DNA of 64,000 nt from positions 14,270,001 to 14,334,000 of the forward strand of contig JAQISU010000210.1 in NCBI GenBank assembly GCA_029339505.1. The letters run 5' to 3'. Of this stretch, positions 17,145-52,724 are shown one piece after another (position 1 is the stretch's first letter; every line of letters starts with the position of its first letter). The notes under the pieces are model-generated. The model searched no databases, was not told the origin of the DNA, and saw nothing but the letters and a program-made list of their open reading frames with translations. The DNA comes from Unio delphinus. Taxonomy: Eukaryota; Mollusca; Bivalvia; Unionida; Unionidae. A program made the position numbers and the translations under genes.

Positions 17145-17590
17145 ATGGATCTATATTCTGTGAAATGTAAGACGCGTACTGGCACAGATGACTTGACGAC
17201 GATTACAACTAAAAATAACAGATCAGCACTTTCTAAGTGTGTACAATGTAGTACAAAAATAAACTCCCAGGAACACCATGGGCAAAATATCCAGGAGAAA
17301 AACACCTTCCAGGGTATTGTTATTGTGGACCATGGGCTAGACTCGATATCAGACTCGATGATCCAAACCAACTCCGACCCGGTGAAAACCGAAAAAACTC
17401 CATTGATAAGGCTTGCCATGCTCATGATGTTGCTTATACAAGCAGTAATCTGCAACAGAGACATATCGCAAATGTGAAATTGATTCACGCGTTGAATACT
17501 ATCACTGATAAGTCCTTTAAAGAAAACATTTTCTTCATGGTTGATAAAATCGGCAATGAAAGATAAATTGATGATGGGTGCTGTTAATTA
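17145..17590 (+). pseudogene. Zinc ribbon/PLA2 remnant, element D
   Basis: The zinc-ribbon start is present but its first CxxC is changed to SVKC, and the linker with the A-run is deleted, so the PLA2 part lies in a different frame. The calcium-loop motif reads CGPWARLD instead of CGPGTRLD. The His-Asp dyad region (HAHDVAY) is preserved. Elements B and C keep the motifs that are lost here. Confidence 0.8.
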
Positions 17591-26273: not shown

Positions 26274-26517
26274 AGCAGCAGAGAGGGTGAATCCTACAAC
26301 ATTTGTTTAGTATATTTTTGATTATACCCTCCAAAATAACACTAGACCCTTCTCGCGAATAACTAGAAAAAAAAATGACAGTGATTGTTGTCTGAAAACA
26401 TGAGATTCGCATTCGCGTTTTCGTTGATGAATCATAAAATGTCGCAACGTCGTTGTCACTCACCCCTCTCTGCTGCTAAGGTTTACGGTGATTTTAACCG
26501 AATATTTTATCAAGTCC
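26274..26517. repeat. Element B left terminal inverted repeat
   Basis: Reverse complement of 42120-42361 with few differences. It contains an internal inverted copy of its own tip (TCACTCACCCCTCTCTGCTGCT, ending at 26477). Its inner end covers the last codons of the ATPase gene. Confidence 0.95.
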
Positions 26518-27159
26518 GATACGATATCGTGTCCTAGGGTCTGCTAAATTTATTGTCACAAATCCGTGTGGTCTTGACTGAGCGTGACTAAAGAAATTTC
26601 TAAATTGATTATGATTCATATCACCGCTGCACCAGGTCTGATGAATATTTCGTAGCGTATGAGTATCAACGCCGTTAAATACACACAACACATTGCAATT
26701 ATCTCTGATCACTTTTGGTATTGGTGTGTACCGTTGAGTGACATAGATCACATCAGTGTTTTTATGCCTGCCTCGGGAAAATATTCTAGCAGGATTTTTT
26801 TGATTATCTAACATGATATCATCGTATACCACTAAATTGTTAATACTTCCATCGATGTCTTCCACGGAAGGGGCTTCCTCTATATCAGTAATAAACTCAA
26901 TAAAATCTTCATCGATTTGAAATTCTTTTGCTTTCTCGTTAAAATCCTTTAGCACTTCATAGCATCGCTGATCGTCTACACTCGGGGCTATTAAATACAA
27001 TTTGTTCCATTTCATCCATCTCGTTATCAAATTAAGTAGCAGTTGTGTCTTTCCGCTTCCAGATGGTCCGATTATAATCATTCTAATTGAATTCGGCAAC
27101 ATTTCATGATGTTTAATAGGTTCCCGTCGTCGGGTAGCTGAATAATCAATTATATTCAT
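26494..27159 (-). CDS. Virion DNA-packaging ATPase (FtsK/HerA-like)
   Basis: This 221-residue P-loop ATPase should power genome packaging into the capsid, as the Polinton and adintovirus ATPases are thought to do. The Walker A motif is GPSGSGKTQ (about residues 32-40), and the Walker B-like motif is NNLVVYDDIMLDN (about 106-118). A polar sensor region follows (DVIYVTQRYTPIPKVIRDN). The start is MNIIDYS, the same as in the C and D copies. It runs away from the zinc-ribbon gene, with only 17 bp between the two start codons. The final codons (RYRIGLDKIFG) lie inside the left TIR. The gene is intact. Confidence 0.93.
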   Translation of the reverse strand: MNIIDYSATRRREPIKHHEMLPNSIRMIIIGPSGSGKTQLLLNLITRWMKWNKLYLIAPSVDDQRCYEVLKDFNEKAKEFQIDEDFIEFITDIEEAPSVEDIDGSINNLVVYDDIMLDNQKNPARIFSRGRHKNTDVIYVTQRYTPIPKVIRDNCNVLCVFNGVDTHTLRNIHQTWCSGDMNHNQFRNFFSHAQSRPHGFVTINLADPRTRYRIGLDKIFG

Positions 27160-27176
27160 GCCGTTATATATAAATT
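27160..27176. promoter_or_regulatory. Divergent ATPase/zinc-ribbon promoter gap
   Basis: Only 17 bp, containing TTATATATAA, separate two divergent ATGs. The TATA-like sequence lies about 5 bp from the zinc-ribbon start, so transcription must begin very close to the start codons or inside the neighbouring genes. Confidence 0.5.
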
Positions 27177-27374
27177 ATGGATCTATATTGTGTGAAGTGT
27201 AAAAAACGTACTGGCACAGATGACTTGACGACGATTACAACTAAAAATAACCGATCAGCGCTTTCTGGTAAATGCATACAATGTAGTACAAAGAAATTTA
27301 GATTTGTTTCTAAACCCAAGGAACTCAAGGAACCTTTAAAAAAAAAAGAGGAGGTGATATCGCAGCCAAGCTAA
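27177..27374 (+). CDS. Zinc-ribbon protein, probable N-terminal part of a ribbon-PLA2 fusion
   Basis: 65 residues. The N-terminus has CVKC and, 20-odd residues later, CIQC, forming a four-Cys zinc ribbon (MDLYCVKCKKRTGTDD, then ALSGKCIQC). The fold resembles the DUF5679-type ribbon found in viruses. A Lys/Glu/Pro-rich linker follows and contains a run of ten A bases (27338-27347), after which the frame ends at 27374. The next open frame, in the -1 register, is a PLA2 domain without its own ATG. I infer that the full product is made by slippage on the A-run, with the 65-residue form as the unshifted product. Confidence 0.85.
   Translation: MDLYCVKCKKRTGTDDLTTITTKNNRSALSGKCIQCSTKKFRFVSKPKELKEPLKKKEEVISQPS
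27336..27347 (+). promoter_or_regulatory. Candidate -1 frameshift site (TTA AAA AAA AAA)
   Basis: Codons run TTA-AAA-AAA-AAA-GAG in the ribbon frame, so A-AAA-AAA heptamers sit in the correct phase for -1 slippage. The -1 frame then runs open for 120 codons, including the stop, through the PLA2 domain. A CCTGGAA/TTCCAGG stem (27383-27389 with 27423-27429) lies downstream, but about 35 nt away, which is farther than usual for a stimulator. Confidence 0.6.
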
Positions 27375-27706
27375 CTAAACTCCCTGGAACCCCATGGGCA
27401 AAATACCCTGGAGAAAAGCACCTTCCAGGATATAGCTACTGTGGACCGGGAACAAGACTTGATATCAGACTCAATGATCAAAATCAGCCCCGACCCGGTG
27501 AGGAACCAATAAACGCTATTGATAAGGCCTGTCACCTTCATGATGTATCTTATAAAAGCAGTAATCTGCAGCACAGGCATCTAGCAGATGTGAAATTAAT
27601 TCATGCCTTAAATGCTATTTCTGATAAATCTTTCAAAGAAAAATTGGCTTCCTTTTTGATAAAATCGGCTATGAAAAGTAAATTGATGTTAGGTGTTGGT
27701 AATTAA
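27347..27706 (+). CDS. Phospholipase A2 domain (parvovirus VP1-like), read in -1 frame
   Basis: 119 codons carry a secreted/viral PLA2 signature: calcium-loop motif YCGPGTRLD and, about 25 residues later, DKACHLHDVSY with the catalytic His-Asp pair. Such domains in parvovirus capsids and in Polinton relatives are thought to open endosomal membranes during entry. The frame has no ATG upstream of the calcium loop, so it must be reached by frameshifting from the zinc ribbon (or by an unrecognised splice). It ends 7 bp before the integrase ATG. The element C copy has the same length. Confidence 0.82.
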   Translation, partial: RGGDIAAKLTKLPGTPWAKYPGEKHLPGYSYCGPGTRLDIRLNDQNQPRPGEEPINAIDKACHLHDVSYKSSNLQHRHLADVKLIHALNAISDKSFKEKLASFLIKSAMKSKLMLGVGN

Positions 27707-27713
27707 TAACAAC

Positions 27714-28667
27714 ATGGAATTTATTTATTATTCCCCAAGAGGATACTGGAGGGGTAAATCAGCAATCCATAAACTCGCTAGCGCTGCGAAAGTGAAAAAA
27801 ACAACTGCGGCTCATTGGTTATCCAAACAGGCACTATGGCAAATTTATCTACCACCGCCTAAACAAATCAATTTCTCGCATTTTGATGTGACCGGACCCA
27901 ATGAAGTTCATCAGGCTGATATATTATTTCTGCCACATGATCGTGGTTACAAATACGCATTAACCGTAGTTGATATTGCAAGTCGATACAAAGAAGCAGA
28001 ACCGTTAAAAACAAAATCAGCCACTGAAGTGGCTTCTGCATTTGAAAGGATTTATCGAAGGAGTCCTCTGCACTGGCCAAATCTGTTACAAGTTGATCCG
28101 GGCAAGGAATTTCAGGGTGCAGTGTTATCTACAATGAAAAATCACAATGTCGCTATCAGACGAGGGCATACTGCGCTACATCGTGATCAGGCCATTGTAG
28201 AACGGTTTAATAAAACCCTTGCTGAGCGGTTATTTGGATATCAATATGCAAAAGAATTCATCCAAGAAAAAAGATCCCGTGAATGGGTTAAAAGGTTACC
28301 AGCTGTGATTACTGCACTGAATAACGAGATTACTAGAACCATCAACATGAAACCTATGAACGCGATTAAAAAGAAGTCAATACCTGAAATGGAAATTCAA
28401 ACAGATTTTATCGTTTCCCAACCAATTCTTGGTAGTAATGTCATTGTGAGGTACTTATACGAACCAGGAGAGCTTGAGGGTGGCACAAAAAGGGCTACTG
28501 ATCCTATTTGGAGTATTACTGCACACAAGATATCTAGTATAACACGATCTACGGGTAGACTTCCAATCTATAAACTGGATTCAACTGCGCCTCAACGGGG
28601 TTTTACTAGACAACAATTACAAGTGATACCTGAGGATACTCAATTACCACCGCATGGGCTTAACTAG
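27714..28667 (+). CDS. Retroviral-type (DDE) integrase
   Basis: 317 residues from the ATG at 27714; upstream GTG codons in frame overlap the PLA2 gene and are unlikely starts. The RNase H-fold core has the catalytic triad: Asp in VHQADILFLP, Asp in LQVDPGKEF, and Glu in QAIVERFNK, with 34 residues between the last two. The N-terminus has a small helical domain (STAAHWLSKQA-like) without a classical HHCC finger. The C-terminus (LGSNVIVRYLYEPGELEGG...) is an SH3/chromo-like DNA-binding domain. It joins element ends to target DNA with a 5-bp stagger, matching the duplications seen. The stop overlaps the convergent polymerase gene (TTAACTAG). Apparently intact. Confidence 0.93.
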   Translation: MEFIYYSPRGYWRGKSAIHKLASAAKVKKTTAAHWLSKQALWQIYLPPPKQINFSHFDVTGPNEVHQADILFLPHDRGYKYALTVVDIASRYKEAEPLKTKSATEVASAFERIYRRSPLHWPNLLQVDPGKEFQGAVLSTMKNHNVAIRRGHTALHRDQAIVERFNKTLAERLFGYQYAKEFIQEKRSREWVKRLPAVITALNNEITRTINMKPMNAIKKKSIPEMEIQTDFIVSQPILGSNVIVRYLYEPGELEGGTKRATDPIWSITAHKISSITRSTGRLPIYKLDSTAPQRGFTRQQLQVIPEDTQLPPHGLN

Positions 28668-31600
28668 CACCCTTGCGTCTATTGCACTCAAGACAAGTCA
28701 ACATCACATTATTTCTGACATGACCGAGATTGTTTTTTTTTCTGTCTACGGTGAATTGGCGAGGATCCTTATCCGAATACTGCCAACGCATTATACAATT
28801 GCAACTCGCGCAATGATTACCGGTATTCTGTTGTTGCTTCAGAGTAATTATTAATTCAGCATCAATATCAAATTCTCGTTGTTTTTTTTTGTCTTGTTGT
28901 TTGTAACCGGAGAGTTTTTTATCAATAATATCATCTATTGTGGTGTCATTATCATCGCCAATGATTTCATCATCGCCTGACTCTGTCAGGACAATTCTTC
29001 GAAGTTGATTTATTTTTCGTACTCTAGACACTGCGAGATAGACTAAATTCGACCACTCTATGCGATTATCTACCATCCAAACAATTGTATCCGATATAGT
29101 CAATCCCTGTGAAGAGTGTATTGTTGCTGCATAACCTAGCGTCCATGGGGATTTATTAGCACGCAATGCATCTTCAACGACATTGATATCAACCAGCACA
29201 ATATCATTTAATACGAGAATCTGCTTTTCACGCCTTGACTCTGTCAGGCCTGGAATATCAACTTCGATGTTCTGTTTTCGTGTATCCGATGGCCTATAAC
29301 AGAGGGGCACTGGAAGTGTTGCAAATTTTTGTTTATGCAATTCAAATAACTTCATCTGAAGTGTGTCCCTGACTATTTTTCTACTTGCAATGATTAAATC
29401 ATTTGGTCTCCACGCTTCCCAAAACTCATTCATGGGAGTTTCCGAAATTATTTCACGGGCTATTTCACACTGGATTTTATCCGGTTGTAATCTAATTAGT
29501 TTCTTAAATTCTTTTAATTCATTATCAAGTGATCTATGATCGGTATCAATTTCTTCATAATAGTCTACAAAACCCTTTAGCCATTCATGGGGGGATGCAC
29601 CGACAAATGGTGGTGGTTGCCCGTGATCACCGCACATGACGACTTTTGTATTTTTTAATAACAACCACTCAAAAAATATTTTTAAGACATCTTCTGACAC
29701 TGTGTCTATTTCATCCCAAAACATGATTTCAGGAATAAATTTCTCTCCCATGCGCTCAGGAGTCCATTTATCTCCCTTCCATCGGAAAAAGCTGTGATAA
29801 GTGCAGGCATTTACCCCTCTCTGTATCATTTCTCTTGCAAGTCTATGAGTTGGTGTTAGTACAATCATGTTTGATTTCCCACGATATAACTCAATTGCCC
29901 GGGTTGTTTTTCCTGACCCGCCACAGCCGTTTAAATAAACTGTTTTATATCTACAGATTGGATCCGAAATCGGTGGTGCACTAGAAAATTCTGAACACTG
30001 ATTGCTTTCTAAGTAATTATTTTCAATGGTAACATCTGCTGATGGAATATAATCATGAAGCATTTCCTTCTTAATTCTCCATGACCCCCATTTCTCGTTG
30101 CCAGTAGCCTTAAAATCAGCCATTTTGCTATTTATGTAAAATGAGTCAGTAGCAACTCTAACTGCGGTGGTAGGAAATCTATTGATCATTGAAAACAGAT
30201 TGATAGAAGCATAATCAAGCATAGAAGCTCTCAAATATGTGTACTGCGGATGGTATCCATCAGTGTAAGTAACAATTGTACCCAATTTGGTTCCATCGGA
30301 CATAAATGCGTCCTTACGATTGACATATCAAACCTTATTCGTTAAATCCGTGATTACAAAATCGTATTCAGCGTTGTCTATAATCAATTGTGAAGAATAT
30401 TTCGTATTATCATCTTTGCCACCTTGGGTAAATTTACCGATTATTCTTCGCCCAAGATTTTTTGCTTCATTGTTTCTGATTTCAAATAACTGTCTGGACC
30501 AATCCATGATTTGTTGTTCATTAAAATCAGGAAACAGTTTTCGCTCTTCGCTAATTATTTTTTCTAGATCAGTTTGGGGTAACCAGACTGATTTCTGTGC
30601 TCGATAGGATATAATTGCTTCACTGACAATTAATGATTTTAACATCTTACAATCAAGCATATACCGTAATAACACTATTGGCATCCAGTGTTTTTCAGAC
30701 ATGTGTTTACCAATCCAAAGATAACTACACGGATGAAGTCCTGTAGCCATTTCAAATGATACTACACAAGCGAATCCGGTTAAATCGAAATGTGGCAGTG
30801 GTCCATTAATAGCAACACGGGTCATTTCGTGTGTGGGGTGTCCAAATCGGTTGAAATATTTCTCACACTCTCCATACCCAAGAAAACTTCCTGGATAACA
30901 TGCAATCATATCAACTGAAATAACGGTATCAGCGGTGTATTTTGTGTTCCATAATACCCGCCGTGGCTGTATTCAAGACAGGACAATTTGACATCTGATA
31001 AAAACTCACTTCGTGTTGGTTTCCACGCGTTTTTCTTTCTAGCAAAATGTGCTGCAATGGATGGTACTGTAAAACAGTTTGCTAATAATTGATCGTTGTC
31101 TTCCTCCAGAGAAAACTCACTAGCTAGTTGTTTCATTTGATTATGCAGCTCTTCAGTACGGTACAAGTCTCCGTTGGGCCTTACAAACTGATCAAATCTA
31201 CATTCTTCGTCTGAAGTACTATGAAATAGCCACACTGACACAGGATCGTTTTTACTCAAATGGTAAATAGCATCAAATAATTTCTGCTCTGAAAAAAACT
31301 CTTCGGTTTGGGATAGATATTTTACGGTTCTATCCCGTGGGAATATTGTTACTGCAGATGACCACGCGTGTTCGTTATGATCAATAATCTGTATTGGGGT
31401 TCCATTTTTATTATATTTCGATTCGTATAATACTTCACCGGTGATTGTCCTTACCGATATTGGAAATCTCAATGATGTTTCTAATTTGGCTATATCTTGA
31501 ATTGTTGCCCCATGCTGTTTCACTGTCAGTTCCCATTCGGTTATTTTTTTTCGTCTTAGATCAGTTAGTTTATTTCCCCGGGACGCATTTGTGAAGTGTT

Positions 31601-32132
31601 CCATTATTCGTGCTGCTACACAATTGAGCCCTGTCGAATATTTCATGGGTGCTAGTTTTGCAATATCAGGTTTGTCATTGAGCGGATATATCCCGTAAAC
31701 AACTGCTGTGATAGGATAAGATCTTTCGTAGTAGGGTTTATCAATTCCAGTCAAAATTCCCGGTTTTGAATCCTGAGTCACAGTGACAGTTTTTTTGTCC
31801 TTAAGAATAGGCTCGTATTTGTCCCTAATGATCCATTATCCATTATCACGGATAAGGAATTTTATTCGAAAAAAATTTCTTTCTTCCCCAACATTTGAGA
31901 TTATCACTGCTGCTTTTTCATCATTCATGGTAGCGTCAACAACACCATCAATTCGAAATGTTGACCAACAATGAGCTGCCCCGTCACGCTTGAATTCATT
32001 AAAACAGTCTCTGATTTTACTAATCAAGGTTCTATCAAGAATTTTATTCTTTGGTGTATCAGAAACTCTATCAAGATTGAATTGAACACTTTTCCAAGGC
32101 TTAATTTTCGATAATCTCTCGAACTCCTCCAT
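28660..32132 (-). pseudogene. DNA polymerase-SF1 helicase-HNH fusion, broken in element B
   Basis: About 1156 codons. The N-terminal region is unassigned. Polymerase-like motifs follow: A (Asp in the VDMIACYPG context), B (NEAKNLGRRIIGKF) and C (VRVATDSFYI). Then comes an SF1 helicase: Walker A GCGGSGKTT, DEID, GDHGQPPPF, and a GYAATIHSSQGLT to AVSRVRK motif V/VI region. At the end is an HNH domain (CASC, FTVDR, GHVRNN, CLECN). Breaks: TAA at 31838-31836, a 2-bp insertion near 30955, and TGA at 30330-30328. The helicase-HNH half (30303-28660) is open. In the living element this would be the replication enzyme. Confidence 0.85.
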
Positions 32133-32174
32133 ACTATAATTAAAACAAGTATTTAAATGAAAGATTTAAGTATA

Positions 32175-32498
32175 ATGAATCATTGCAAATGGCTTATGAT
32201 TGGATCAGTGACACCGTGTAACAAATCATGCATAATTGAATTCTGTTGGTATCATATGCAAAGCTTTCGTCGTGGAAGCCTTGGTCCGTTACCCTGTATT
32301 CGATGTGGGGTTGGGGTCAGGGGGAAGTCGCAATTATGTCTTAGGTGTGGCGGCAAACGATACAGGGAACTAAAACGCTATTATGATAAAAGAATAAAAA
32401 ATACTGTCATTGACCCCAACGATGACAAAATCATAAAGACTCCTCAAGATTATATACAGAGACTTATAATTAAACCAAACAATGAATTAGAAAAATAG
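32175..32498 (+). CDS. Second zinc-ribbon protein, unknown function
   Basis: 107 residues from the ATG at 32175, chosen because it follows the TATAATG context seen at other starts. Paired cysteines (CIRCGVGVRGKSQLCLRCG) form a likely zinc ribbon in the centre. The first part has three more Cys (TPCNKSCIIEFC). The second half is basic and helical (KRYRELKRYYDKRIKN), suggesting nucleic-acid binding. It is present but broken in element D and deleted from element C, so it is dispensable or was lost there. Confidence 0.6.
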   Translation: MNHCKWLMIGSVTPCNKSCIIEFCWYHMQSFRRGSLGPLPCIRCGVGVRGKSQLCLRCGGKRYRELKRYYDKRIKNTVIDPNDDKIIKTPQDYIQRLIIKPNNELEK

Positions 32499-32511
32499 TG
32501 TTATTATACAA

Positions 32512-32780
32512 ATGAACCAATAATTCAGACTTCACCCGTGCTTGTTAATTATGAACATCCTGTGATGGTATTATCAGAAACCGCAGATTGAAGAATCCAG
32601 TTGGATTTGTGGTATTTGATCAGTCAGATAGATAGATTAATATCTGAACATTTAATGTTCTCTGTAGGTGTTGAATGATAACTTAATTCTTGAATAATAG
32701 AATCAAGGATGGTTATGTTATTGATCATATTGATTCCGATTCTCAGAATAATTCTTTACCATTTCAAAAGAGACATGACA
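32512..32780 (+). pseudogene. HNH homing-type endonuclease remnant, element B
   Basis: It is homologous to 52189-52680. The ATG is followed by a stop at codon 4 (32521-32523). Later pieces RRLKNPVG-like and DGYVIDHIDSDSQNNSL survive in other frames. Homology ends near 32780, where foreign sequence begins. Confidence 0.75.
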
Positions 32781-33850
32781 AAAAATTCGATTTTCGTATG
32801 TCTATAACACCAAGGGAGACAACTCTTAAATATAACCAATGGATATAACCAAGGGAGTTATCATTGTGATTTAGCGGCTGGGTATTGTTTTATAAGAAAA
32901 GAAATATTTTCTTTTTTTTTTAGTGTTTAAGTCAAATATTCTGTCTCACGTGCGATTAATGCGTATTTCATAAACATAGAATGTGATCCGGAGATGCAGG
33001 CGTTACAGGATAACACACGTGTATACTTTCTCCCTTAGATTGTGTTAACTTGTTTTATGGGTTATTGCGATTCAGCGGCTGGCATTGTTTTGTAAGAAAA
33101 GAAATGTTTTCAAACAATTATATTCTTTGTTTTAGTGTTTAAGTCAAATATGCTGTCTCATTTAAATACTGTGAAACACCATTAATAAGTAATTCAAGAA
33201 AATAAAATAGCATACCTTGCGGATTGCTGTATTAATTCCCTTTATATACCATATGAATATTTACAACATATATATGTTAAGAAACGTTATTCTTTATGGA
33301 CGTGAACAGTGGTCTAACGGTATCGTGTTTGGCTTGTAAACCCAGACAATTATTCTTCACATGTTCGCGCCCCATAGCAGACAATTGTCTGATGGTGAAA
33401 CGGTGGATGTTTTTTTTTCTATTTAATTGAGGGGAGGGAGGGGAAACCCCTCTGTGTTTACATTCACATAACATGCAAACCCATGCTATCAAATTTACGG
33501 TAGCGGTGGGTTGTCGGTTTTTGACAACTTACGCAACCATGAATTTGATTTCATGGGTTGCATGTTGAATGTAAACACATAAATGCCCTAAAATAAATAA
33601 CATCCATGGATGTAATTAGCTCTCCATCACATTTGGGTAGCCCCGTATGGTGTTCAAAATGAATTACCGGCCAAAAAAAGGTTCGTGGATGCACATTGGG
33701 TAACCCCAGAATGAATTATAGGCTAAAAGAAACGGTCATAGGGTCATATCTCAAAGAGCAAAAACAAAAAAAAACATTCTGATATAAAACAGAAACAGAA
33801 AAATGCTCTAACAAAGGAACCCTATGAAAGACACAAAGGCCTAATAAGGG
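32781..33850. other. Insertion in element B, host-type sequence
   Basis: About 1.1 kb has no counterpart in elements C or D. It contains two imperfect copies of an 85-95-bp block (32866-32949 and 33066-33160; AGCGGCTGG...TGTTTAAGTCAAATA) and a tRNA-like segment near 33298-33380. It appears to have entered next to the already broken HNH gene. No target duplication was identified. Confidence 0.5.
33290..33385 (+). repeat. tRNA-like segment, possible SINE head
   Basis: An A-box-like GTGGTCTAACGGTATCG, a CTTGTAA anticodon-loop-like stretch and a B-box-like GTTCGCGCCCC lie in order. Spacing and stems are imperfect, so this is a decayed tRNA-derived repeat at best. Confidence 0.35.
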
Positions 33851-33950
33851 ACCCAATGAATGCAAATAGAACCACAGCGGCCTATATCAAGGGGGCCAAA
33901 TGACTGATAATCGCTCATCATGGTTGTTATTTATTTTTGTCTGCATTTAT

Positions 33951-34313
33951 ATTTATATATACAGACTGAATTTTAAAAAAGATATTTATATATACAGACT
34001 GAATTTTAAAAAAGATAGTTATATATACAGACTGAATTTTTAAAAAAGATATTTATATATACAGACTGAATTTTAAAAAAGATAGTTATATATACAGACT
34101 GAATTTTTAAAAAAGATAGTTATATATACAGACTGAATTTTAAAAAAGATAGTTATATATACAGACTGAATTTTAAAAAAGATAGTTATATATACAGACT
34201 GAATTTTTAAAAAAGATATTTATATATACAGACTGAATTTTAAAAAAGATAGTTATATATACAGACTGAATTTTTAAAAAAGATATTTATATATACAGAC
34301 TGAATTTTGAAAA
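33951..34313. repeat. 33-34-bp minisatellite, 11 copies
   Basis: Eleven tandem units of the type TATATATACAGACTGAATTT plus TAAAAAAGAT. Units vary by one T and by ATTT versus AGTT. The array sits just upstream of the small conserved gene and is absent from C and D. Confidence 0.95.
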
Positions 34314-34367
34314 TATTAACGGCTCTTTTATTTTTGAAAAATGAATTAGAAATATGTATTATCATAT

Positions 34368-34724
34368 ATGAATTCTGAAAATATGAATAGCATCATAGTT
34401 GAAATTGGAAAATTGAAAAATGAGGATATTAAATTGTCAGATGGGTTAAATCCTGATCAAATCAAGTCGGATTTTCAGGATATAGAATACGGAGTTAGCA
34501 CTAACAAGTATATGTTACCAAAGAAATATGCACTCATCAAAAAAATTCAAAATTCTATTCGAGACTCTCTTGCATTTTCCAGTGAAGTAGATGTGTTTGT
34601 TCCGTTATATACTATCGTGGAAGGGATACGAAAAGAATTGGGTAACGAATATGAATTGAAAAAGGAAGTTAATTCTAAAATTAGAAACTTACGAGCGTTA
34701 ATTCAAGAAAATGAACTATTTTGA
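34368..34724 (+). CDS. Small conserved Polinton protein, unknown
   Basis: 118 residues, charged and predicted mostly helical, starting MNSENMNSIIVEI. It is highly conserved with the element C copy (same length) and recognisable in D. The block PKKYALIKKIQNSIRDSL is the best conserved. There are no Cys, membrane or enzyme motifs. The position between the HNH gene and the virion genes does not settle a role. A DNA-binding or regulatory role is possible but not shown. Confidence 0.75.
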   Translation: MNSENMNSIIVEIGKLKNEDIKLSDGLNPDQIKSDFQDIEYGVSTNKYMLPKKYALIKKIQNSIRDSLAFSSEVDVFVPLYTIVEGIRKELGNEYELKKEVNSKIRNLRALIQENELF

Positions 34725-35214
34725 TTGACCGACCCTCAAAAGATTTTGTCAGACAGTAAAACCTCTTTGAGATTTTCATTTTTTTTGTCATTTTTTTTAT
34801 TGAATCAGTGAAAATATTTCACACTGCGAAAATAAAATAGAATCCTAACTTTTAAGAACTTTTCCCTATGGAAATCGACTACTTGACCCTACGAGGTTTT
34901 TTGATGAAAATCGATGAAAAATGACCAAACATCACTGAAAACAGGCAAAAATTGATGAAAAATGGCTAAAAATCATCAAAAATGAGTTTTAACAGCTTTT
35001 CCTTATGGAAAATCCCATGTAAAATCGACTACTTGACTGTAAAATCTCTCTTTGAGATTTTCAACTGAAAACCACCAAAACTGTCAAAAAACAGGCAAAA
35101 TCAATGGATAAAAAATAAAAATATTTCACAGCAATAAAAAATGGACCGTTAGGGAAGGAATCATCGATGGGAAAAATTGGTTTGCAATTGAAAAATGGTT
35201 TCTGATTTCAAATA
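34725..35214. other. Non-coding spacer with short repeats, element B
   Basis: AT-rich sequence with imperfect repeated phrases (TTTCCYTATGGAAA, ATCGACTACTTGAC, CTCTTTGAGATTTTCA) and no open frame of note. Element C has a different spacer here. Confidence 0.6.
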
Positions 35215-35870
35215 ATGGTTAATGAGGCATTATCAACCCGATTGGCTCGTGAACGATTAGATGCAATTAAGAGATTTATACCAATTCGTGACTCTGTAAG
35301 GAATAAACTGCAACAACGACAGAGTTTACAAACTGATTTTGCTTTAGGGTCTGAAGAATTGTTTAAACCAGTAACCACAGCAACGAAAGGGGTTGAGCGT
35401 GCTTTACTGGGAGATGTTCCCGAGACGGGGAAATCTGTTATTGGTGAACTCGAAAAAATAGCAGCGAAAACTGAACAAACAAAACAAATGGAATCAAAAA
35501 GAACAGTAGATGATTTACGCGTGAGATTTAACGAGGAAGGGTTAGCAGAAATTGATAAGACTGATCCAACAAAAATTCCTGAGCTTGTTGTTACGTCTTA
35601 TGAAAACAGAAAAAAATGGTTGAAACCAGAACATCATAAGTTTGTTAAAAATTTCACTCACTGGGCTGATATATTCTATAAAATCAAAACTGGAAAAAGT
35701 CAAAAAAAGACAGATAGTGCATCATACATTGAATATATCAGGATGGTGGATCACGTGTATAATCAATACGAAGAGTTTAAACAACAACAAAAACCGCAAA
35801 AACCGCAAAGGCGGCGACAGCAACCTGCAAAGAAAATTTCTTTCTCTCCTAAAAAACAACAACTACCACG

Positions 35871-35902
<32 letters not shown>

Positions 35903-36186
35903 ATTTACAAGAAACGAATTTAGAAAAACTAGATGAAGCAACTGGTTATAGCGGAAGTGGATTAGGAAATCCAAGGATTGGAAACACTTGTCCTGATAGT
36001 GTTATCAATGATATATCACGATTAGATGTTCTTGTAGGAGGGTTCCGAGCTGGAAATAACTCTCCAGAAATAATTAATGAAGCAGCTGATATCTGTAGAC
36101 GGTTATTTCAAGGTGGTATCATGGATATCAAAACATATCGAGATTTTATTGGCGAGTTAGCGGAAAGTGGGTATCATAGTGACTGA
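35215..36186 (+). CDS. Asp-run virion-associated protein
   Basis: 323 residues. The N-terminal helical basic part (STRLARERLDAIKRFIPIRD) leads to a conserved EELFKPVTTATKG block. A central domain (KPEHHKFVKNFTHWADIFYK) is followed by a Gln/Lys-rich linker, a run of consecutive Asp from a GAT repeat (about residues 218-227), and a conserved C-terminal block (GNTCPDSVINDISRLDVLVG, then RRLFQGGIMDIKTYRDFI). All four elements carry it as the first virion-side gene. I infer a minor virion or scaffold protein, perhaps analogous to adenovirus cement proteins, but no homology to a named family is visible. Confidence 0.8.
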
Positions 36187-36196
36187 ATAACAATTG

Positions 36197-36212
36197 AAAA
36201 CACTAGTGTTTT
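36197..36212. promoter_or_regulatory. Palindromic start-proximal motif, GDGLG gene of B
   Basis: The palindrome AAAACACTAGTGTTTT is followed by TATAATAATG at the gene start. Related AACRCTAGYGT motifs precede the membrane gene in B and C and the Asp-run gene in D, each within about 8-15 bp of the ATG. Confidence 0.55.
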
Positions 36213-36219
36213 TATAATA

Positions 36220-36654
36220 ATGATTATACACTACAATCATGATAAACCAACCCCCGTCTATGTAGTTAATTCACGGTTTCCAGTTTATAGAGCATACTAC
36301 GGAGATGGTTTAGGTAATACCATTGCAGGGTTATTTACAAGAACGGCTCCAAAAGTGATGCCGTTAGCTAAACAACTAGGAATGAAAGCCATTGATGTTA
36401 TTCGTGATAAGGGTATTAGTGCTGTTGGAGATCTTGCCGGGAAAGCGTTTTCAACTGCGAAGGATAAAATAACATCATTAGTGAGACGAAAAAAGAAACC
36501 GTTACCGTCTACAGAAGAAATGCCTGCAAGTGTTAGTAAAATAATAAATAACGCAGTAGATGAAAAACTAGCGTCGATGGTAAATCAAGAGGGCCAAAAT
36601 AACATGACAGCAAACATGATAGCAGGAAGTGGCTTTAAAAAACCACGTCGATGA
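36220..36654 (+). CDS. GDGLG-motif basic virion protein
   Basis: 144 residues. The N-terminus has PVYVVNSRFPVYRAYYGDGL. The middle is amphipathic (APKVMPLAKQLGMKAIDVIR). A cluster RRKKK follows, then a flexible tail ending GSGFKKPRR. It is conserved in A, B and C directly before MCP. Small size, amphipathic helix and basic tail suggest an internal capsid or membrane-active protein such as adenovirus protein VI, but this is inference from layout only. Confidence 0.78.
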   Translation: MIIHYNHDKPTPVYVVNSRFPVYRAYYGDGLGNTIAGLFTRTAPKVMPLAKQLGMKAIDVIRDKGISAVGDLAGKAFSTAKDKITSLVRRKKKPLPSTEEMPASVSKIINNAVDEKLASMVNQEGQNNMTANMIAGSGFKKPRR

Positions 36655-36733
36655 AATCCTATGGATTTTCACGCTAGCGTTTTTCACAATGAAATGGAAA
36701 AAATCCGATTTAGACTCTGATAAATAGAATAAA

Positions 36734-38155
36734 ATGTTCAAAAGGTCATCTGATCCAGGATTTGATATGGATGCCCCAGTGCGTAAAGATGATTCTGTAC
36801 GCGATTTTCAATTTTATTCTTATCACGCAATACAACCCGATCTCCGATCACGAATTGAACTTCAAGTTCATGATACCAGTAAATACTTTTTGCCTTGTGA
36901 AGCGTTTATTGAAGTAGAAGGAGAACTTGTAACAAATGATGCTGCACATAATGATCCTCCATATGACATTAGCCAAACTACCCGAGTTGGTTTTGTCAAT
37001 AACGGTATCATGGCGTTATTTGAAAGCGCTAGATATCTCATTGATGGAAAAGAAATTGAATCCATTGACCGTGAAGTTGATGTGGCTACAACAATCATAG
37101 GGTTAGCAAGATATTCTGATGATTATACAAGATCAGCAGGTCCATCTATGATGTTTTCTAAGGATATTACTGATAACCCTGAACACAACCAGTATTCTAG
37201 AGTCAAGGCAACACACGCTTCTTCAGTTAATCCAGCACCAGCCTTATATACAAGACCAGCTGGTGATTTTGATGTCATAAATACTATTACTACTTACAAT
37301 CTAGGATTTGCAACACGTGTAGCAATGTTGCAAGGACAGCGTCGACAATTTTCATGTGCAATTCCACTGCATCATATATTCGGATTCTGTAGAAACGTCC
37401 GAAAAGTTATTTATGGAGCTAAACACACAGTAGCGCTTGTACGAAAGGGTACTGATAATGATGCAATATGGCATGAGGCTGGTGTTCCTGATGGTAAAGT
37501 CATTTTAACAAAACTATCATTGTGGATGCCAGTGTTAACTCCATCAATCACCTCAGAAGAAAAATTGTTATCATTTATGGACCAAGGAGGAAAGTCGTTA
37601 TTGAGTTGGTTATCAGTGACTACGGATACTAAACAAGACAATGTTGATGGTACATTCACATGGCACCTGGCATCAAAACAAGGGGTTTCAGCTCCACGTC
37701 ATATATTTATTGCATTACAGAATAATATACGAGTTGGTAATCAACAACGAAGTCATATGATATTTGATCAGTTAGGTGTTAATGAAGTCTCGCTGAGAAT
37801 AAACGGACAACAGGAACCATCTGAAGATGTGCAACTTGATTACGGTCAAAATCATATTGCACGTGTCTATCATAACATGTTGTCATTTATGGCACGTGAT
37901 CAAAATGTGGAATGCGGTTTGCAAATATCACAATTGGATTTTAAAGGCCTCTATCCGATTTATTACTTTTCGCTGGAACATCTTGATTTAACAAGACAAT
38001 CTGTCGTTGATATACACTTTAGAGCCCGTGTAACCCGTCCTGGTGCTGTTGCTAATTATAGAGCGGTTGCTGTCATTCTCAGTGATAAATCAATGCTACT
38101 TGAAGGTGTTGGTGGACGAATGAGATTTATTGATGCACCAGTGGAAAATATGTAA
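36734..38155 (+). CDS. Major capsid protein, hexon-like double jelly roll
   Basis: 473 residues, the longest conserved virion gene. Family blocks are TSKYFLPCEAFIEVEGE near the start, LFESARYLIDGKEIESIDRE, SCAIPLHHIFGFCRNVRKVI in the middle, and DFKGLYPIYYFSLEHLD near the end. Size, position after the GDGLG gene and before the protease block, and similarity to Polinton/adintovirus hexons support a trimeric double-jelly-roll capsid protein forming the shell. It is intact and close to the element C copy, with the greatest divergence around residues 160-200, where an exposed loop is likely. Confidence 0.9.
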   Translation: MFKRSSDPGFDMDAPVRKDDSVRDFQFYSYHAIQPDLRSRIELQVHDTSKYFLPCEAFIEVEGELVTNDAAHNDPPYDISQTTRVGFVNNGIMALFESARYLIDGKEIESIDREVDVATTIIGLARYSDDYTRSAGPSMMFSKDITDNPEHNQYSRVKATHASSVNPAPALYTRPAGDFDVINTITTYNLGFATRVAMLQGQRRQFSCAIPLHHIFGFCRNVRKVIYGAKHTVALVRKGTDNDAIWHEAGVPDGKVILTKLSLWMPVLTPSITSEEKLLSFMDQGGKSLLSWLSVTTDTKQDNVDGTFTWHLASKQGVSAPRHIFIALQNNIRVGNQQRSHMIFDQLGVNEVSLRINGQQEPSEDVQLDYGQNHIARVYHNMLSFMARDQNVECGLQISQLDFKGLYPIYYFSLEHLDLTRQSVVDIHFRARVTRPGAVANYRAVAVILSDKSMLLEGVGGRMRFIDAPVENM

Positions 38156-38183
38156 ACGATTTAGAATCAATCAATTATGTATA

Positions 38184-38600
38184 ATGTCATATAGTAATAT
38201 CAATGTGTCTTTGACACCTGGTCAAATCAAAAAATTGCAATCAAAATCCGCTAAACAATGTGGAACCACAATCACGTTGAAACCTAATCAAATGAATGGA
38301 GGGGCAAATAAATTGCCACTGACAACTCGTCAAGTGAAACATTTCAATGATGCTTTCAAGGATAAAAAAGGAGTTCAGATCACACTCTCTTCGGCTGCTA
38401 TCAAAAATATGATTAAAACAAGGCGGTATATTTCCGTTGTTAGCTGCAATACCAGCATTGGTTGCGGCAGCAGCCCCAGCAGTAGCAAAAGCGGCCGCAT
38501 TGGGGGTAGTTGGAGGCTTGGGAACAAAAGCGGTACAGAGCATTGCTGAATCATATGAACCGAAGAAAGGTCGAGGGTATAAAAAAAGGGAAAGGGTCTA
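38184..38600 (+). pseudogene. Small protein with Ala-rich hydrophobic tail, frameshifted in B
   Basis: The ATG at 38184 follows TATAATG and opens MSYSNINVSLTPGQIKK. The conserved N-terminal domain (about 78 residues, to AAIKNMIKT) is followed, after one extra base near 38421, by the Ala-rich segment GGIFPLLAAIPALVAAAAP in another frame. In the ATG frame an unrelated tail runs on to 38549. The element A copy shows that both parts were once one protein, probably membrane- or core-associated. Confidence 0.75.
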
Positions 38601-38700
38601 AGACTACCAGGAACCCCGTATTCATGGTACAGCGGAAAGGGTCTAAGACTACCAGGAACCCCGTATTCATGGTACAGCGGGAGATCCGTTCACGGATCAG
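38591..38700. repeat. 45-bp tandem repeat across the gene junction, element B
   Basis: Two near-perfect 45-bp units (GGTCTAAGACTACCAGGAAC... to TACAGCGG) plus a partial third. The period of 15 codons keeps all frames open. Element C has the same array at 56869-56978. Confidence 0.9.
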
Positions 38701-38758
38701 GCCTGAGACTACCAGGAACGATTTATTAATTGAGGAACCTATGGTTCCCAAATCTTCG

Positions 38759-39205
38759 ATGGTTCCCATGTCCAATTTTGATTTAATGGATGCGGCTAAA
38801 AAACTAGTGATTAACAATTTCAGAGGTGTTTTTATGAAAGATCAATTACCACATCAACCAAACAAAACTGAAACAGGTATTATTAATCTCGATAACAGCA
38901 CCGGACCTGGAACTCACTGGGTTGCATACGCTATTGATCCACGTGGGATTGTCTATTTTGATTCATATGGATTAGCCCCACCAAAAGAGTTTATGCGTTA
39001 TATAAAACAATTTCCAATGAAGACTTGGTATTCTACGCTACCAACACAACAAATCAATGACCCACCAATATGCGGCAGTGAAGTATTAAATGTCCTTGAC
39101 GCTATTTCTAACTCCTTGGGTAACCCAAGGGGGAAACCACCACACATTGTCGTAAATGACTACACCAGCAATCGCTTTTTAGAGAGAGAAAGAATTTTAC
39201 AATAA
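38759..39205 (+). CDS. Adenain-like maturation cysteine protease
   Basis: 148 residues from the ATG at 38759; the longer open frame upstream is the 45-bp repeat and is not conserved in element A. Catalytic residues are in the adenovirus-protease order: His in GTHWVAYAI, Asp in VYFDSYGLAPP (Glu or Asp in the family), and Cys in QQINDPPICGSEVL. A Gln expected for the oxyanion hole may be one of the QQ before the Cys. It should cleave virion precursors during maturation. The stop is 1 bp before the fibre-like gene's start. Confidence 0.9.
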   Translation: MVPMSNFDLMDAAKKLVINNFRGVFMKDQLPHQPNKTETGIINLDNSTGPGTHWVAYAIDPRGIVYFDSYGLAPPKEFMRYIKQFPMKTWYSTLPTQQINDPPICGSEVLNVLDAISNSLGNPRGKPPHIVVNDYTSNRFLERERILQ

Positions 39206-39206
39206 C

Positions 39207-40234
39207 ATGATTGATATTTGGGGGAGACCTCTGAAACCCAAACCCGATGACACTGCAACTCCTGATTCTATCAAGGAGATAAAAAAAAAATTAAAGATGA
39301 AATCGCTGAGACGTTGAACTTAACAAGTGTTGACCCGAATGAAATAGTTGTATTTCAGGACAAACAGGGTAAATTGAAATCCAGTGATATGTCGTTGGAT
39401 GATATTTTAGTTAAACAACGAAACGCAATCGAGAATACTATCGCGCTATTTTCCGATCAGGGTAAATTGAAAACCAGTAATGTCTCTCTGGATGATATTT
39501 TAGTTAAACAACGAAACGCAATCGAGAACACCGTTGCGTTATTTTCCGATCAGGGTAAATTGAAAACCAGTAATATTTCTCTGGATGATATTTTGGTTAA
39601 ACAACAAAATGCAATCGAGGATACTATCGCGTTATTTTCCGATCAGGGTAAACTCAAACCAGGTGTACTTTTTTCGACGATTACAGATCGATTTAAAACT
39701 CTCAACGATTCTGCGTTAGAACTAGCAACACTTCAATCTAAAACCGAAGAACACATTAAACAGTTTACCGCATTTCGTAGAAATATCATTGATAAATTTA
39801 TTGGAACTACATTCGATAAAATTGAACTAAAACTCCCTGATATTAAAAAATCCATCGATGAGACGAAAAACTTCATCGAAGCCGTCAAAGGTGATTTTTC
39901 GAGGATGATAACAGTTATTGAAAAAACAAAAATTCCTCATGAGAAAAATAACAACGTAGTATACACTATCCAACACGGATCATTTGTGTGGACACCTGAA
40001 AACAACACATTAGATATCACTGCAACCGTTAAGGGTATTTATCGATTAACAATAGTGAGAACGGCTCAATTTAATATTTCATCGTCGAGTTCATCCGGAG
40101 TCAATAATACGATTTCAACGATCATCGACAAGGATACAACTGAACAGTTCACGTTAATAGCTACTGATACAAATTTGGTTAGGGTTACAACAACATGGTA
40201 TGTGGAATTCGTAGCGGATTTAAGTAAATCGTAA
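39207..40234 (+). pseudogene. Fibre-like coiled-coil protein with three 32-residue repeats, frameshifted in B
   Basis: The ATG at 39207 opens MIDIWGRPLKPKPDD. An A-run of ten bases at 39281-39290 is one short of the in-frame length, so the frame is lost by codon 30. From 39314 it is open again. Three tandem 32-residue repeats (SLDDILVKQRNAIENTIALF plus SDQGKLKTSN) precede a coiled-coil shaft and a C-terminal beta-rich domain (ISSSSSSGVNNTISTIIDKD). The layout suggests a trimeric fibre or spike. Element C has one repeat and an intact frame. Confidence 0.75.
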
Positions 40235-40237
40235 TTG

Positions 40238-40254
40238 AAAACGCTAGCGTATTT
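40238..40254. promoter_or_regulatory. Palindromic start-proximal motif, membrane gene of B
   Basis: AAAACGCTAGCGTATTT lies 9 bp before the ATG at 40264. It is identical to 58272-58288 in element C. Confidence 0.55.
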
Positions 40255-40263
40255 AAAATAAAA

Positions 40264-40898
40264 ATGATTTCATCATCGCAATATCGCTATGATCAGATCA
40301 GAGAGTATCAAACTAGACTCAAAACCTTGTCTGAGGAGCATGCAATGAAAATTAAAAAATATCGCAGGAGAATTACCGCAATTGATGTTACTGTGTACGC
40401 TGTGAGTGGTGTAATCACCGGAGCTGGTATTATACTGTCTTCAGTGACAATGATGGCCCCGATAGCTGTTCCAATTTGCATTTCTGCGGCAACAACAATC
40501 GCTGGAATAATCACAAAAAAATATCCTCATGCAGCCAACGGAAACTACAAGACTACATAATTCAATTTCATGTTGTGTCCACTGCATACTCGCAATTATC
40601 CTCATTGATATCGTCATCGCTCGATGATACAATTATATCAGAGAGTGAGTTTTCAGCGATGGTAGATATATATGATTCTGCGATGTCAAAATTAGAAATA
40701 CAACATGAGTATAATAACAATGACAACACAGATGGAATTACTTCAACAAATAGTGGAGAACACGAACCCAGTACAAACAAGCATGATCTCAATAACCACA
40801 ACGAATCCAGAATTCAGTGTGAATTTCCCCTCTCCGGTCCCAGTGAAGGAGATAGCGCTAGCAAAATTACGAGTATACCACAATTGGCCAAATATTAG
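40264..40898 (+). pseudogene. Virion membrane protein, frameshifted in B
   Basis: It starts MISSSQYRYDQIREYQ, with a basic coiled region and a long hydrophobic region (about residues 44-80). Compared with element C it lacks 9 bp and one A near 40512, so the frame changes and the first open part ends at 40560. The second part (KISSCSQRKLQDYIIQFH...) stays open in the other frame to 40898 and overlaps the penton gene. Confidence 0.75.
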
Positions 40899-42067
40899 GT
40901 CAAAATCATTTGGTGGTCAACAACCCAATAATTCACTGGTATTTGCAAATAAGAATAAACCCGACGGTACCCCAGACTGGAACGTTGTTTCCATACCAAC
41001 CGGATCATACCAAATCGAACAAATCAATAACGAATTCGCGCGTAGAATAAAATCGATTACTGGAAAAGAGTCAAAAATAGCTATAACGGTTCATGAGCCA
41101 ACACTATCATCTGCCATTGAAATAAGCACAGAGGGTTATGTCGTAGATATCTATCAAAGTTCTATTAGAACCGTACTGGGATGGCCTGAAATCCCACCCG
41201 GGGGAAAAACCGTTGATTTACCAGAACCAAAAAAAAACTGATTATGTCACAGACAGGATAAAATCTGATAATCCAATAAAGAGTTATAAAGATTATAATA
41301 AGTGGGAACTTTTCAATGGAATAGTAGAAAATAACGTTGTCAAATTCGTACCCCGACAGAACAAAATTACTGAAAATTTCACAGCGATGGAATATGATTT
41401 TTTACTGTTGTTAATATCCATTAAATCCGGCACTCTCACCCGAGATGAATTTATCAGCGTTGTAGAAATATGTAACAAAATCATCAATGACATGGAAACA
41501 TTTCATTCACAAATTATTCAAGAGATATTAGGTGACGATAATCCTAAAACGAGAACAGAGTTTGCGATGAAAGGTAATATACGCGTAGAAGATATTCGTG
41601 AGTTTAAACTACCAGGATATAATATCTCAGAATTACAAAAATCTCTCAGTGATGCCATCGATGAAGGTTTCAAAAAAATCCATGATACGTGGAAAAAAAC
41701 AGCATCACCGGAAATAAAAATCCTCAAACATAATAATGATCCAGATGGTGGTGGCAGGCATATTGCTCCGTTCAATGTGAATATTTCAACGGTGATTGCG
41801 CTCAATTTAGTATGCGATGTGATCGATGGAAGCTATCAAATAAATTTAGAACGATCAAATCAAGCTCAGCAAGGATATATTTTGTATTCATTTGCACCAA
41901 CAGCTCCTCCAGGGTTTTTAATAATTGAGTCTCCGGTGAATCCAGTCTATATGCGATGTCATAATAATTCATTAACCAGAATTAATTTCAAACTCACTGA
42001 CCAGTCTAATAATCTGATTGATTTACAAGAGGAGGTTTTACAAATTAGTCTGTTTGTGAAATCCTGA
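40705..42067 (+). pseudogene. Penton-like minor capsid protein, frameshifted in B
   Basis: It is homologous to the intact 455-residue protein at 58749-60116. The N-terminal half is open to 41241 (SIPTGSYQIEQINNEFARR, SSIRTVLGWPEIPPGG). An A-run of nine bases (41229-41237), one longer than the matching stretch in C, shifts the frame. The rest is open from 41213 to 42067 and ends ISLFVKS. It would form the five-fold vertices. Confidence 0.82.
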
Positions 42068-42119
42068 AAGGATTTTCGTCGTAAAGACTTTCATCCTAAG
42101 GGGATTTTCGTCGTAGTAA

Positions 42120-42361
42120 GGACTTGATAAAATATTCGGTTAAAATCACCGTAAACCTTAGCAGCAGAGAGGGTGAGTGACAACGACGTTGCGACATTTA
42201 TGATTCATCAACGAAAACGCGAATGCGAATCTCATGTTTTCAGACAACAATCACTGTCATTTTTTTTTCTAGTTATTCGCGAGAAGGGTCTAGTGTTATT
42301 TTGGAGGGTATAATCAAAAATATACTAAAAAAATGTTGTAGGATTCACCCTCTCTGCTGCT
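42120..42361. repeat. Element B right terminal inverted repeat
   Basis: Inverted partner of 26274-26517. It begins about 50 bp after the penton stop codon. Confidence 0.95.
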
Positions 42362-45828: not shown

Positions 45829-46108
45829 AGCAGCAGAAGGGGCGAATCAGACAACATTTTTAGACAAGTTTTCACTGAAATCACGCTTAAAAACAATGAA
45901 ACCAGTGACATCAGGACCCAATGTGTGTGTGAATCTGATATCGTTTCATGGATTAGGTCCCAAAAAAAAATATGAAAAAATCAATGAAATTAATGAAATC
46001 CTCCATCGATTTTTGGGAAAAAAGGGACTACAACATCGTTGTCACTCACCCCTTCTGCTGCTATGGGTTAACCGAATATTTGATCCAGTCCGATACGATA
46101 TCGTGTTC
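45829..46108. repeat. Element C left terminal inverted repeat
   Basis: 280 bp matching the reverse complement of 60144-60423. An internal inverted copy of the tip (TCACTCACCCCTTCTGCTGCT) lies at 46042-46062. The inner 41 bp encode the last 13 ATPase codons. Confidence 0.96.
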
Positions 46109-46727: not shown

Positions 46728-46744
46728 ATCTCTATACATAAATT

Positions 46745-46942
46745 ATGGATCTATATTGCGTGAAGTGTAAGGCGCGTACTGGCACAGATGACTTGACGAC
46801 GATTACAACTAAAAATAACCGATCAGCGCTTTCTGGTAAATGCGTACAGTGTAGTACAAAGAAATTTAGATTTGTTTCTAAACCCAAGGAACCCAAGGAA
46901 CCTTTAAAAAAAAACGAGGAGGTAATATCGCTGCCAAATTAG
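46745..46942 (+). CDS. Zinc-ribbon protein, probable N-terminal part of a ribbon-PLA2 fusion
   Basis: 65 residues. CVKC and CVQC form the ribbon, and a Lys/Pro-rich linker follows. The linker codons TTA-AAA-AAA-AAC contain the classical slippery heptamer A-AAA-AAC in the right phase. The unshifted frame ends at 46942, and the -1 frame enters the PLA2 domain. Confidence 0.87.
   Translation: MDLYCVKCKARTGTDDLTTITTKNNRSALSGKCVQCSTKKFRFVSKPKEPKEPLKKNEEVISLPN
46904..46915 (+). promoter_or_regulatory. Candidate -1 frameshift site (A AAA AAC)
   Basis: The tenth A of the element B run is replaced by C here, yet a canonical slippery heptamer and the -1 relationship to PLA2 are kept. A CCCTGGAA/TTCCAGGG stem of 8 bp lies downstream, about 35 nt away. 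Confidence 0.65.
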
Positions 46943-47274: not shown

Positions 47275-47281
47275 TAACAAC

Positions 47282-52680: not shown

Positions 52681-52724
52681 TGCGTCATAATTTCCAATTA
52701 AAGATATGTCATTCTTATAGAATA

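What the first reader, a model, noticed from the sequence alone, without database searches (positions are those of the whole stretch)
27336..27706. Probable programmed -1 frameshift joining a zinc ribbon to a PLA2 domain
In elements B and C the zinc-ribbon frame ends shortly after an A-run, and PLA2 continues in the -1 frame with no ATG before its calcium loop. B has A10 and C has A9 then C, a substitution rather than an indel, yet both keep an in-phase slippery heptamer (A AAA AAA; A AAA AAC at 46909-46915) and the same 120-codon downstream frame. That is what selection on a frameshift signal would leave. It would give two products from one gene, the longer carrying the entry enzyme.
Basis: partly seen in the sequence, partly recalled or inferred. 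Interest (0 to 1): 0.8.

Follow-up and report, generated by a model that had tools for sequence, protein, structure and literature searches.

The report
Ribbon and PLA2 domains, offset frames
In virus-like transposons of what looks like a mollusc genome, a small zinc-binding domain and a membrane-cutting enzyme that many relatives make as one protein sit one reading frame apart at a run of A's, perhaps joined by slippage of the ribosome or RNA polymerase, though mutation of dead copies is not excluded.

Summary
In copies B and C a DUF5679 ribbon ORF (27177-27374; 46745-46942) runs into a PLA2 frame (27314-27706; 46882-47274) offset by -1 at an A-run, with no ATG in the PLA2 frame before the enzyme. 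In-phase heptamers are A AAA AAA (B) and A AAA AAC (C), plus an unreported T TTA AAA in both. Decayed copy A has the same offset. PLA2 in the -1 frame is under purifying selection (B vs C dN 0.022, dS 0.286). The offset recurs: 11 of 16 ribbon-only homologues and 6 of 14 testable PLA2-only ORFs decode to -1; 3 of the 16 look +1. Split and fused states are scattered over the tree, and no clear downstream stimulator was found. Best reading: the gene makes a ribbon-PLA2 fusion, and A-run carriers can reach it by -1 slippage (ribosomal or transcriptional). Main rival: active elements are in frame and split copies are A-run casualties. Own-genome copies could not be searched. Interest moderate.

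The parts
27177..27374 (+). B: DUF5679 zinc-ribbon ORF, ATG to stop (0 frame)
   Evidence: Pfam PF18930 E 2.2e-13
27335..27341 (+). B: in-phase slippery heptamer T TTA AAA
   Evidence: sequence; phase counted from ATG 27177
27338..27347 (+). B: A10 run; in-phase A AAA AAA at 27341-27347
27314..27706 (+). B: open frame in -1 holding the PLA2 domain (PF08398), no ATG before the calcium loop
   Evidence: selection
46745..46942 (+). C: DUF5679 zinc-ribbon ORF
   Evidence: PF18930 E 1.3e-13
46903..46909 (+). C: in-phase heptamer T TTA AAA
   Evidence: sequence
46906..46915 (+). C: A9 then C; in-phase A AAA AAC at 46909-46915
46882..47274 (+). C: open -1 frame with the PLA2 domain
17145..17590 (+). 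A: decayed copy of the same locus (end approximate); same -1 offset, A-run lost in an 84-nt deletion at about 17257
26274..42361 (+). Element B: terminal inverted repeats 244 bp at 98.8%; 6-bp target-site duplication TTAAGT read by eye
45829..60423 (+). Element C: terminal inverted repeats 283 bp at 98.9%; 6-bp target-site duplication TCCATA read by eye
27714..28667 (+). B: rve integrase, 7 nt after the PLA2 stop
   Evidence: PF00665 E 4.9e-8
26494..27159 (-). B: packaging ATPase (Pox_A32-like), divergent, 17 nt from the ribbon ATG
   Evidence: PF04665 E 5.4e-16

Best explanation
The gene encodes a two-domain protein, a DUF5679 ribbon followed by a parvovirus-type PLA2. Many relatives make it from one frame. 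In the lineage of A, B and C, and in several relatives, PLA2 lies one base back. Translation starts at the ribbon ATG. At the A-rich Lys run (in-phase T TTA AAA then A AAA AAA or A AAA AAC) a fraction of ribosomes slips -1, or RNA polymerase makes slipped transcripts, and goes on into PLA2. The rest stop a few codons later and release a ribbon-only protein. Shown: the offset, its recurrence, the heptamers, and constraint on both domains. Inferred: that slippage happens, and whether it is ribosomal or transcriptional.
For: PLA2 -1 frame B vs C dS 0.286, dN 0.022; A vs C dS 0.483, dN 0.113; ribbon A vs C dS 0.332, dN 0.036. No ATG upstream of PLA2 in its open frame. Same offset in A, B and C. 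Of 16 ribbon-only homologues, 8 continue past the run into the ribbon-frame reading of PLA2 DNA, and 11 of 16 decode to -1 (ten by the 8-residue test at 0 of 40 shuffles, P0086 only by the 4-residue test). Six of 14 testable PLA2-only ORFs (P0001, P0002, P0008, P0009, P0012, P0020) have N-terminal extensions that decode to the ribbon motif at the -1 relation, 0 of 200 shuffles each. All six have a Lys triplet at the junction against 6 of 18 in-frame fusions, p 0.014; in one of those six the triplet lies inside the ribbon. Iterated AAA codons make ribosomes lose frame (PMC4363877; abstract and passages). A AAA AAC is the slippery sequence of astroviruses (PMC3835772; passages).
Against: In-frame relatives are common (38 of 76 carry both Pfam domains in one ORF). 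On the tree of 38 rows the split state needs 6 changes, with 51 of 500 shuffles as low. Downstream folding is not better than shuffles in B or C at 80 or 120 nt (z 0.08 to -0.62). A constrained scan with a home-made shuffler gave low counts only for C at some spacings (0-3 of 60 at spacers 6-10), not in B (6-9 of 60 at the same spacers), only in 80-nt windows, and in most of these the first base was not in fact paired. A runs of 9-10 mutate easily (general knowledge), so copies could drift in phase. Three ribbon homologues look +1 (P0089-P0091, by hand; not significant). The -1 excess on the ribbon side alone is weak (11 to 3: p 0.057 against equality, 0.26 against a 2:1 bias to loss). No RNA or protein data.
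Confidence: 0.5

Rival explanations
1. Active elements encode ribbon-PLA2 in one frame. A, B, C and the split database sequences are genomic copies whose A-rich run lost or gained a base by replication slippage after insertion; PLA2 constraint reflects the active lineage.
For: In-frame fusions are common and scattered among split ones. Split ones carry Lys runs. The large replication gene is also broken, differently in B and C, so post-insertion lesions exist. Three sequences look +1 (by hand).
Against: A, B and C all share the same offset, whereas the replication-gene breaks of B and C are not shared. The excess of -1 over +1 is 17 to 3, p 0.0026 against equality, but only 0.06 against a 2:1 loss bias, and the clusters are not independent. 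The six split PLA2 ORFs look full length (by eye).
Confidence: 0.32
2. The A-run is a frame toggle: lineages switch between in-frame and -1 by run-length mutation, and slippage keeps both states viable, changing only the ratio of ribbon-only to ribbon-PLA2.
For: At least 3 state changes forced by well-supported branches, 5-6 by parsimony; few +1.
Against: Same data fit decay; no expression data; P0012, P0020 and P0088 have linkers beyond the run that are not simple run-length variants of fused forms.
Confidence: 0.12
3. Sequencing or assembly error in the homopolymer.
For: The run is A10 or A9, a length prone to miscalling (general knowledge; no call).
Against: Same offset in B and C, in A without the run, and in other contigs with shorter or interrupted Lys runs such as P0084 and P0093.
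Confidence: 0.04
4. A small intron or internal non-AUG start expresses PLA2 separately.
For: None found; the Sinanodonta gene model P0068 drops the stretch between the ribbon and mid-PLA2.
Against: Fused relatives of the close family keep both ribbon knuckles and the linker before PLA2 in one ORF; a splice across the run would have to remove these or be implausibly short.
Confidence: 0.02

Closest known systems
Programmed -1 ribosomal frameshifting of animal viruses (astrovirus and retrovirus type; PMC3835772, passages)
   Same: In-phase A AAA AAC or A AAA AAA, -1 offset, overlapping downstream frame without its own ATG, short main product and longer enzyme-bearing product
   Different: No convincing stimulatory structure 6-9 nt downstream in B or C; a DNA element; the offset is not constant across the family
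Proposed -1 frameshifts in adintovirus Penton, and a similar relationship for Hexon-Adenain fusions (PMC11071296; section 16 and passages)
   Same: Same kind of element, same proposed mechanism, also computational only
   Different: Different genes; there the shift adds an alternative C-terminus, or a protease in Hexon-Adenain; here it would add PLA2
In-frame DUF5679-PLA2 proteins of relatives (P0004, P0006, P0095, P0110 and others)
   Same: Same two domains in the same order; the same GGD linker in the closer ones
   Different: One continuous frame
[quoted passage not shown] abstract and passages)
   Same: A-rich Lys run
   Different: There it leads to termination at out-of-frame stops and mRNA decay, not to a second functional product

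Membership tests
Programmed -1 frameshift gene | In-phase X XXY YYZ slippery heptamer in the overlap | tested here: met
   B 27335-27341 and 27341-27347; C 46903-46909 and 46909-46915
Programmed -1 frameshift gene | Downstream coding frame under purifying selection without its own start | tested here: met
Programmed -1 frameshift gene | Offset and site conserved in relatives | tested here: inconclusive
   17 clusters -1, about 3 +1, many in frame
Programmed -1 frameshift gene | Stimulatory RNA structure 6-9 nt downstream | tested here: inconclusive
   z near 0 in B and C; weak signal in C only; pseudoknots were not tested
Programmed -1 frameshift gene | Both products made | not testable with these tools
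   no RNA or protein data
Polinton/Maverick element | Terminal inverted repeats and 6-bp target duplication | tested here: met
   (duplications by eye)
Polinton/Maverick element | rve integrase, packaging ATPase, double-jelly-roll capsid protein | tested here: met
   PF00665 and PF04665 in B; PF21738 in B and C. C's integrase and ATPase ORFs were not scanned; they align with B's
Polinton/Maverick element | Adenovirus-type maturation protease | tested here: inconclusive
   PF00770 E 0.0031 (B) and 0.0044 (C), below Pfam cut-off
Polinton/Maverick element | Protein-primed PolB | tested here: inconclusive
   No PolB hit in the 925-aa ORF 49324-52101 (Pfam, PDB, PHROGs, NCBIfam); PolB-like palm motifs seen by eye, from recall
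Parvovirus-type PLA2 (PF08398) | Calcium loop YCGPGT and His-Asp catalytic pair | tested here: met
   both read in B and C; H60, D61, G28, T31 invariant in 36 aligned sequences, P29 and G30 at 90% or more

The most novel reading that the evidence does not exclude
A DNA transposon/virus lineage of molluscs uses a Gag/Gag-Pol-like recoding switch, a slippery A-run between a zinc ribbon and a membrane-lysing PLA2, to set how much enzyme-bearing protein is made, and the run toggles over evolution between in-frame and -1 while avoiding +1.
Probability: 0.28. Interest if true: 0.7.

Novelty: new variant of a known kind. Interest (0 to 1): 0.48.

Why it matters
Recoding is well known in RNA viruses. 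For this kind of element I found it only as a computational proposal for adintovirus Penton and Hexon-Adenain genes (PMC11071296, section 16). A slippage site that controls dosage of a predicted membrane-attacking enzyme would give a simple testable clue that such elements make virions with a regulated minor component. In the listings, and in the passages of the papers that I opened, I saw no report of it for PLA2; most listed papers were not opened.

Tried and rejected
Own-genome copies, the best test: the genome search was asked 12 times; it was always busy and never answered. IMG/VR: the PLA2 query gave two 47% matches over 32 residues; the one examined (L001) lies in an unrelated 271-aa ORF, so it was dropped, and L002 was not examined. 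The ribbon query and the alignment A1 gave no relative, nor did GTDB contigs. DNA of the homologous proteins was therefore not available, so the frame of relatives was inferred by decoding proteins.

Downstream structure: and the constrained scan; no pseudoknot program was available. The +1 test could not score P0089-P0091 because a stop precedes the motif; these were read by hand. P0087 and P0092 stay undetermined. Of 16 PLA2-side ORFs given, P0018 and P0101 were too short; P0003, P0022, P0025, P0027, P0028 and P0102 decoded to neither; P0014 and P0096 carry the ribbon motif in the PLA2 frame itself and look like lesions inside the ribbon. P0055, P0071 and P0077 change frame inside PLA2 (by eye; P0055 also) and may be gene-caller artefacts or decay; P0071 and P0077 are still among the 18 fusions, since they are in frame at the junction. 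In the tree P0021 went in untrimmed; 114 of 194 columns were kept.

The PLA2-only side is biased: the conserved ribbon codons supply an ATG in the -1 reading but none near the junction in the +1 reading of B or C, so +1 cases are under-seen there. Ribbon and PLA2 clusters may in part be halves of the same contigs. Splicing and internal initiation were considered and set low.

Full report
What is there. The window holds three related Polinton-type copies. A is decayed (about 16.4-23.0 kb). B is 26274-42361 with terminal repeats of 244 bp at 98.8%. C is about 45829-60423 with repeats of 283 bp at 98.9%. Six-base target duplications, TTAAGT for B and TCCATA for C, can be read at the ends by eye. 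B carries an rve integrase and a Pox_A32-type packaging ATPase; the matching ORFs of C were not scanned but align with B's. Both have a double-jelly-roll capsid protein and a weak adenovirus-protease match. The host is not given. Named PLA2 homologues are from the mussel Sinanodonta (82% over 45% of the query) and the limpet Lottia, so a mollusc is likely (inference).

The locus. In B a ribbon ORF (DUF5679) starts at 27177 and stops at 27374; PLA2 (PF08398) is in the -1 frame, open 27314-27706. In C the same is at 46745-46942 and 46882-47274. The PLA2 frame has no ATG before the calcium loop. Both also have an in-phase T TTA AAA just upstream. B and C align over 544 nt without an indel. The A-to-C difference changes the ribbon-frame codon (Lys to Asn) but is synonymous in the PLA2 frame (Arg to Arg). 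It therefore needs no selection on a slippery signal, only on PLA2.

Selection. B against C in the PLA2 frame: 19 synonymous and 6 nonsynonymous differences, dS 0.286, dN 0.022; the other two frames show no such pattern (dS 0.067 and 0.044, dN 0.079 and 0.081). The ribbon up to the run: 4 and 4, dS 0.116, dN 0.032. A against C: PLA2 dS 0.483, dN 0.113, ribbon dS 0.332, dN 0.036, although A is decayed. In A the distance between ribbon start and PLA2 is again -1 (mod 3 = 2 in A, B and C) after an 84-nt deletion that removed the run. Part of this constraint may predate insertion, so it shows that PLA2 was in use, not by itself in which frame the active element carried it.

Relatives. A search with the PLA2 frame gave 77 proteins. 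A search with the ribbon gave 16, its length limits excluding most fused forms. A search with the natural fusion P0006 gave 76, of which 38 carry both Pfam domains in one ORF. So one-frame fusion is common, also among the more distant proteins that have a DUF5679 ribbon; it is probably ancestral (inference). Many other distant PLA2 homologues show no ribbon at all. The split form also recurs. Eight of the 16 ribbon proteins run on into the ribbon-frame reading of PLA2 DNA (P0078-P0084, P0093), and decoding puts 11 of 16 at -1 (P0078-P0086, P0088, P0093). Three (P0089-P0091) look +1 by hand; two are undetermined. On the PLA2 side, of 16 ORFs given to the test 14 were long enough; six (P0001, P0002, P0008, P0009, P0012, P0020) decode to the ribbon motif at -1, 0 of 200 shuffles each, and none stands out at the opposite shift.

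Pattern. -1 against +1 is 11 to 3 on the ribbon side (p 0.057 against equality, 0.26 against a 2:1 bias to base loss). It is 17 to 3 with the PLA2 side (p 0.0026 against equality, 0.06 against the 2:1 bias). The clusters are not independent, may in part be halves of the same contigs, and the PLA2 side is biased against seeing +1. All six split PLA2 ORFs have a Lys triplet at the junction; 6 of 18 in-frame fusions do, one of these inside the ribbon (Fisher p 0.014). On a tree of 38 PLA2 rows the split state (8 rows with B and C) needs 6 changes, at least 3 forced by well-supported branches, and 51 of 500 shuffles are as low. So split and fused forms interchange; there is no sign of a single old split clade.

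Mechanism. Either the A-run lets -1 slippage restore the fusion, so that the phase can wander between in frame and -1, or the split sequences are mutated copies of in-frame active elements. For slippage: same offset in A, B and C, while the replication-gene breaks of B and C are not shared; shortage of +1; constraint; no ATG; known slippery sequences (PMC3835772 passages; PMC4363877 abstract and passages). Against: abundance of in-frame kin, scatter, ease of run-length mutation, and no clear stimulator. I put slippage at about 0.5 and mutated copies at about 0.32.

Prior knowledge. A figure legend of PMC3671162, whose figure includes Polintons and insect genome fragments, lists a parvovirus-type PLA2 domain; I did not see which element carries it (passage). 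A preprint proposes -1 frameshifting for adintovirus Penton and a similar relationship for Hexon-Adenain (PMC11071296; section 16). PMC11071308 has no mention of PLA2 or frameshift, and PMC8097293 mentions frameshift only as decay and PLA2 not at all (term searches). The literature searches listed nothing by title that reports this gene, but most listed papers were not opened, and DUF5679 is named in no paper of the library. Most subscription papers are not in that library.

Noticed in passing
49324-52101 (-) and 48418-49293 (-); B 28660-31646 (-): The replication gene looks like a diverged PolB-like palm (motifs by eye) followed by an SF1 Dda/RecD-type helicase and, in B, an HNH or endonuclease VII-like end, recalling the Tlr1 pPolB-helicase-endonuclease fusion described in PMC12721341 (passages). 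It is broken differently in B and C.
   Followed up: partly
51648-52039: The N-terminus of that protein is built of tandem repeats of 90-102 bp (MKEFKRLLKINPRFN.. units).
   Followed up: no
27704-27714 and 47272-47282; proteins P0104, P0105: PLA2 stop and integrase ATG are only 7 nt apart, and relatives exist with PLA2 and integrase in one ORF (P0104 has both Pfam domains; P0105 by eye), so the whole ribbon-PLA2-integrase block may be expressed as linked products.
   Followed up: no
27159-27177 and 46739-46745: Divergent ATPase and ribbon start codons are 17 and 5 nt apart, leaving almost no room for a promoter between them.
   Followed up: no
33949-34313: Array of about 11 copies of a 33-bp AT-rich unit inside element B.
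   Followed up: no
B vs C, 36734-38155 and 26494-27159: B-C divergence is uneven: dS 0.53 in the capsid gene and 0.77 in the ATPase against about 0.16-0.19 in the integrase and three other ORFs, which might mean recombination between element lineages.
   Followed up: no
1763-4270 (-): Fragment of a fourth, reversed copy (capsid and protease end), 74-80% like B and C.
   Followed up: no
P0108-P0115, P0117, P0118, P0120-P0124: A distant set of 15 one-frame DUF5679-PLA2 proteins (31-42% identity to P0006) lacks the Lys run between the domains (by eye).
   Followed up: no
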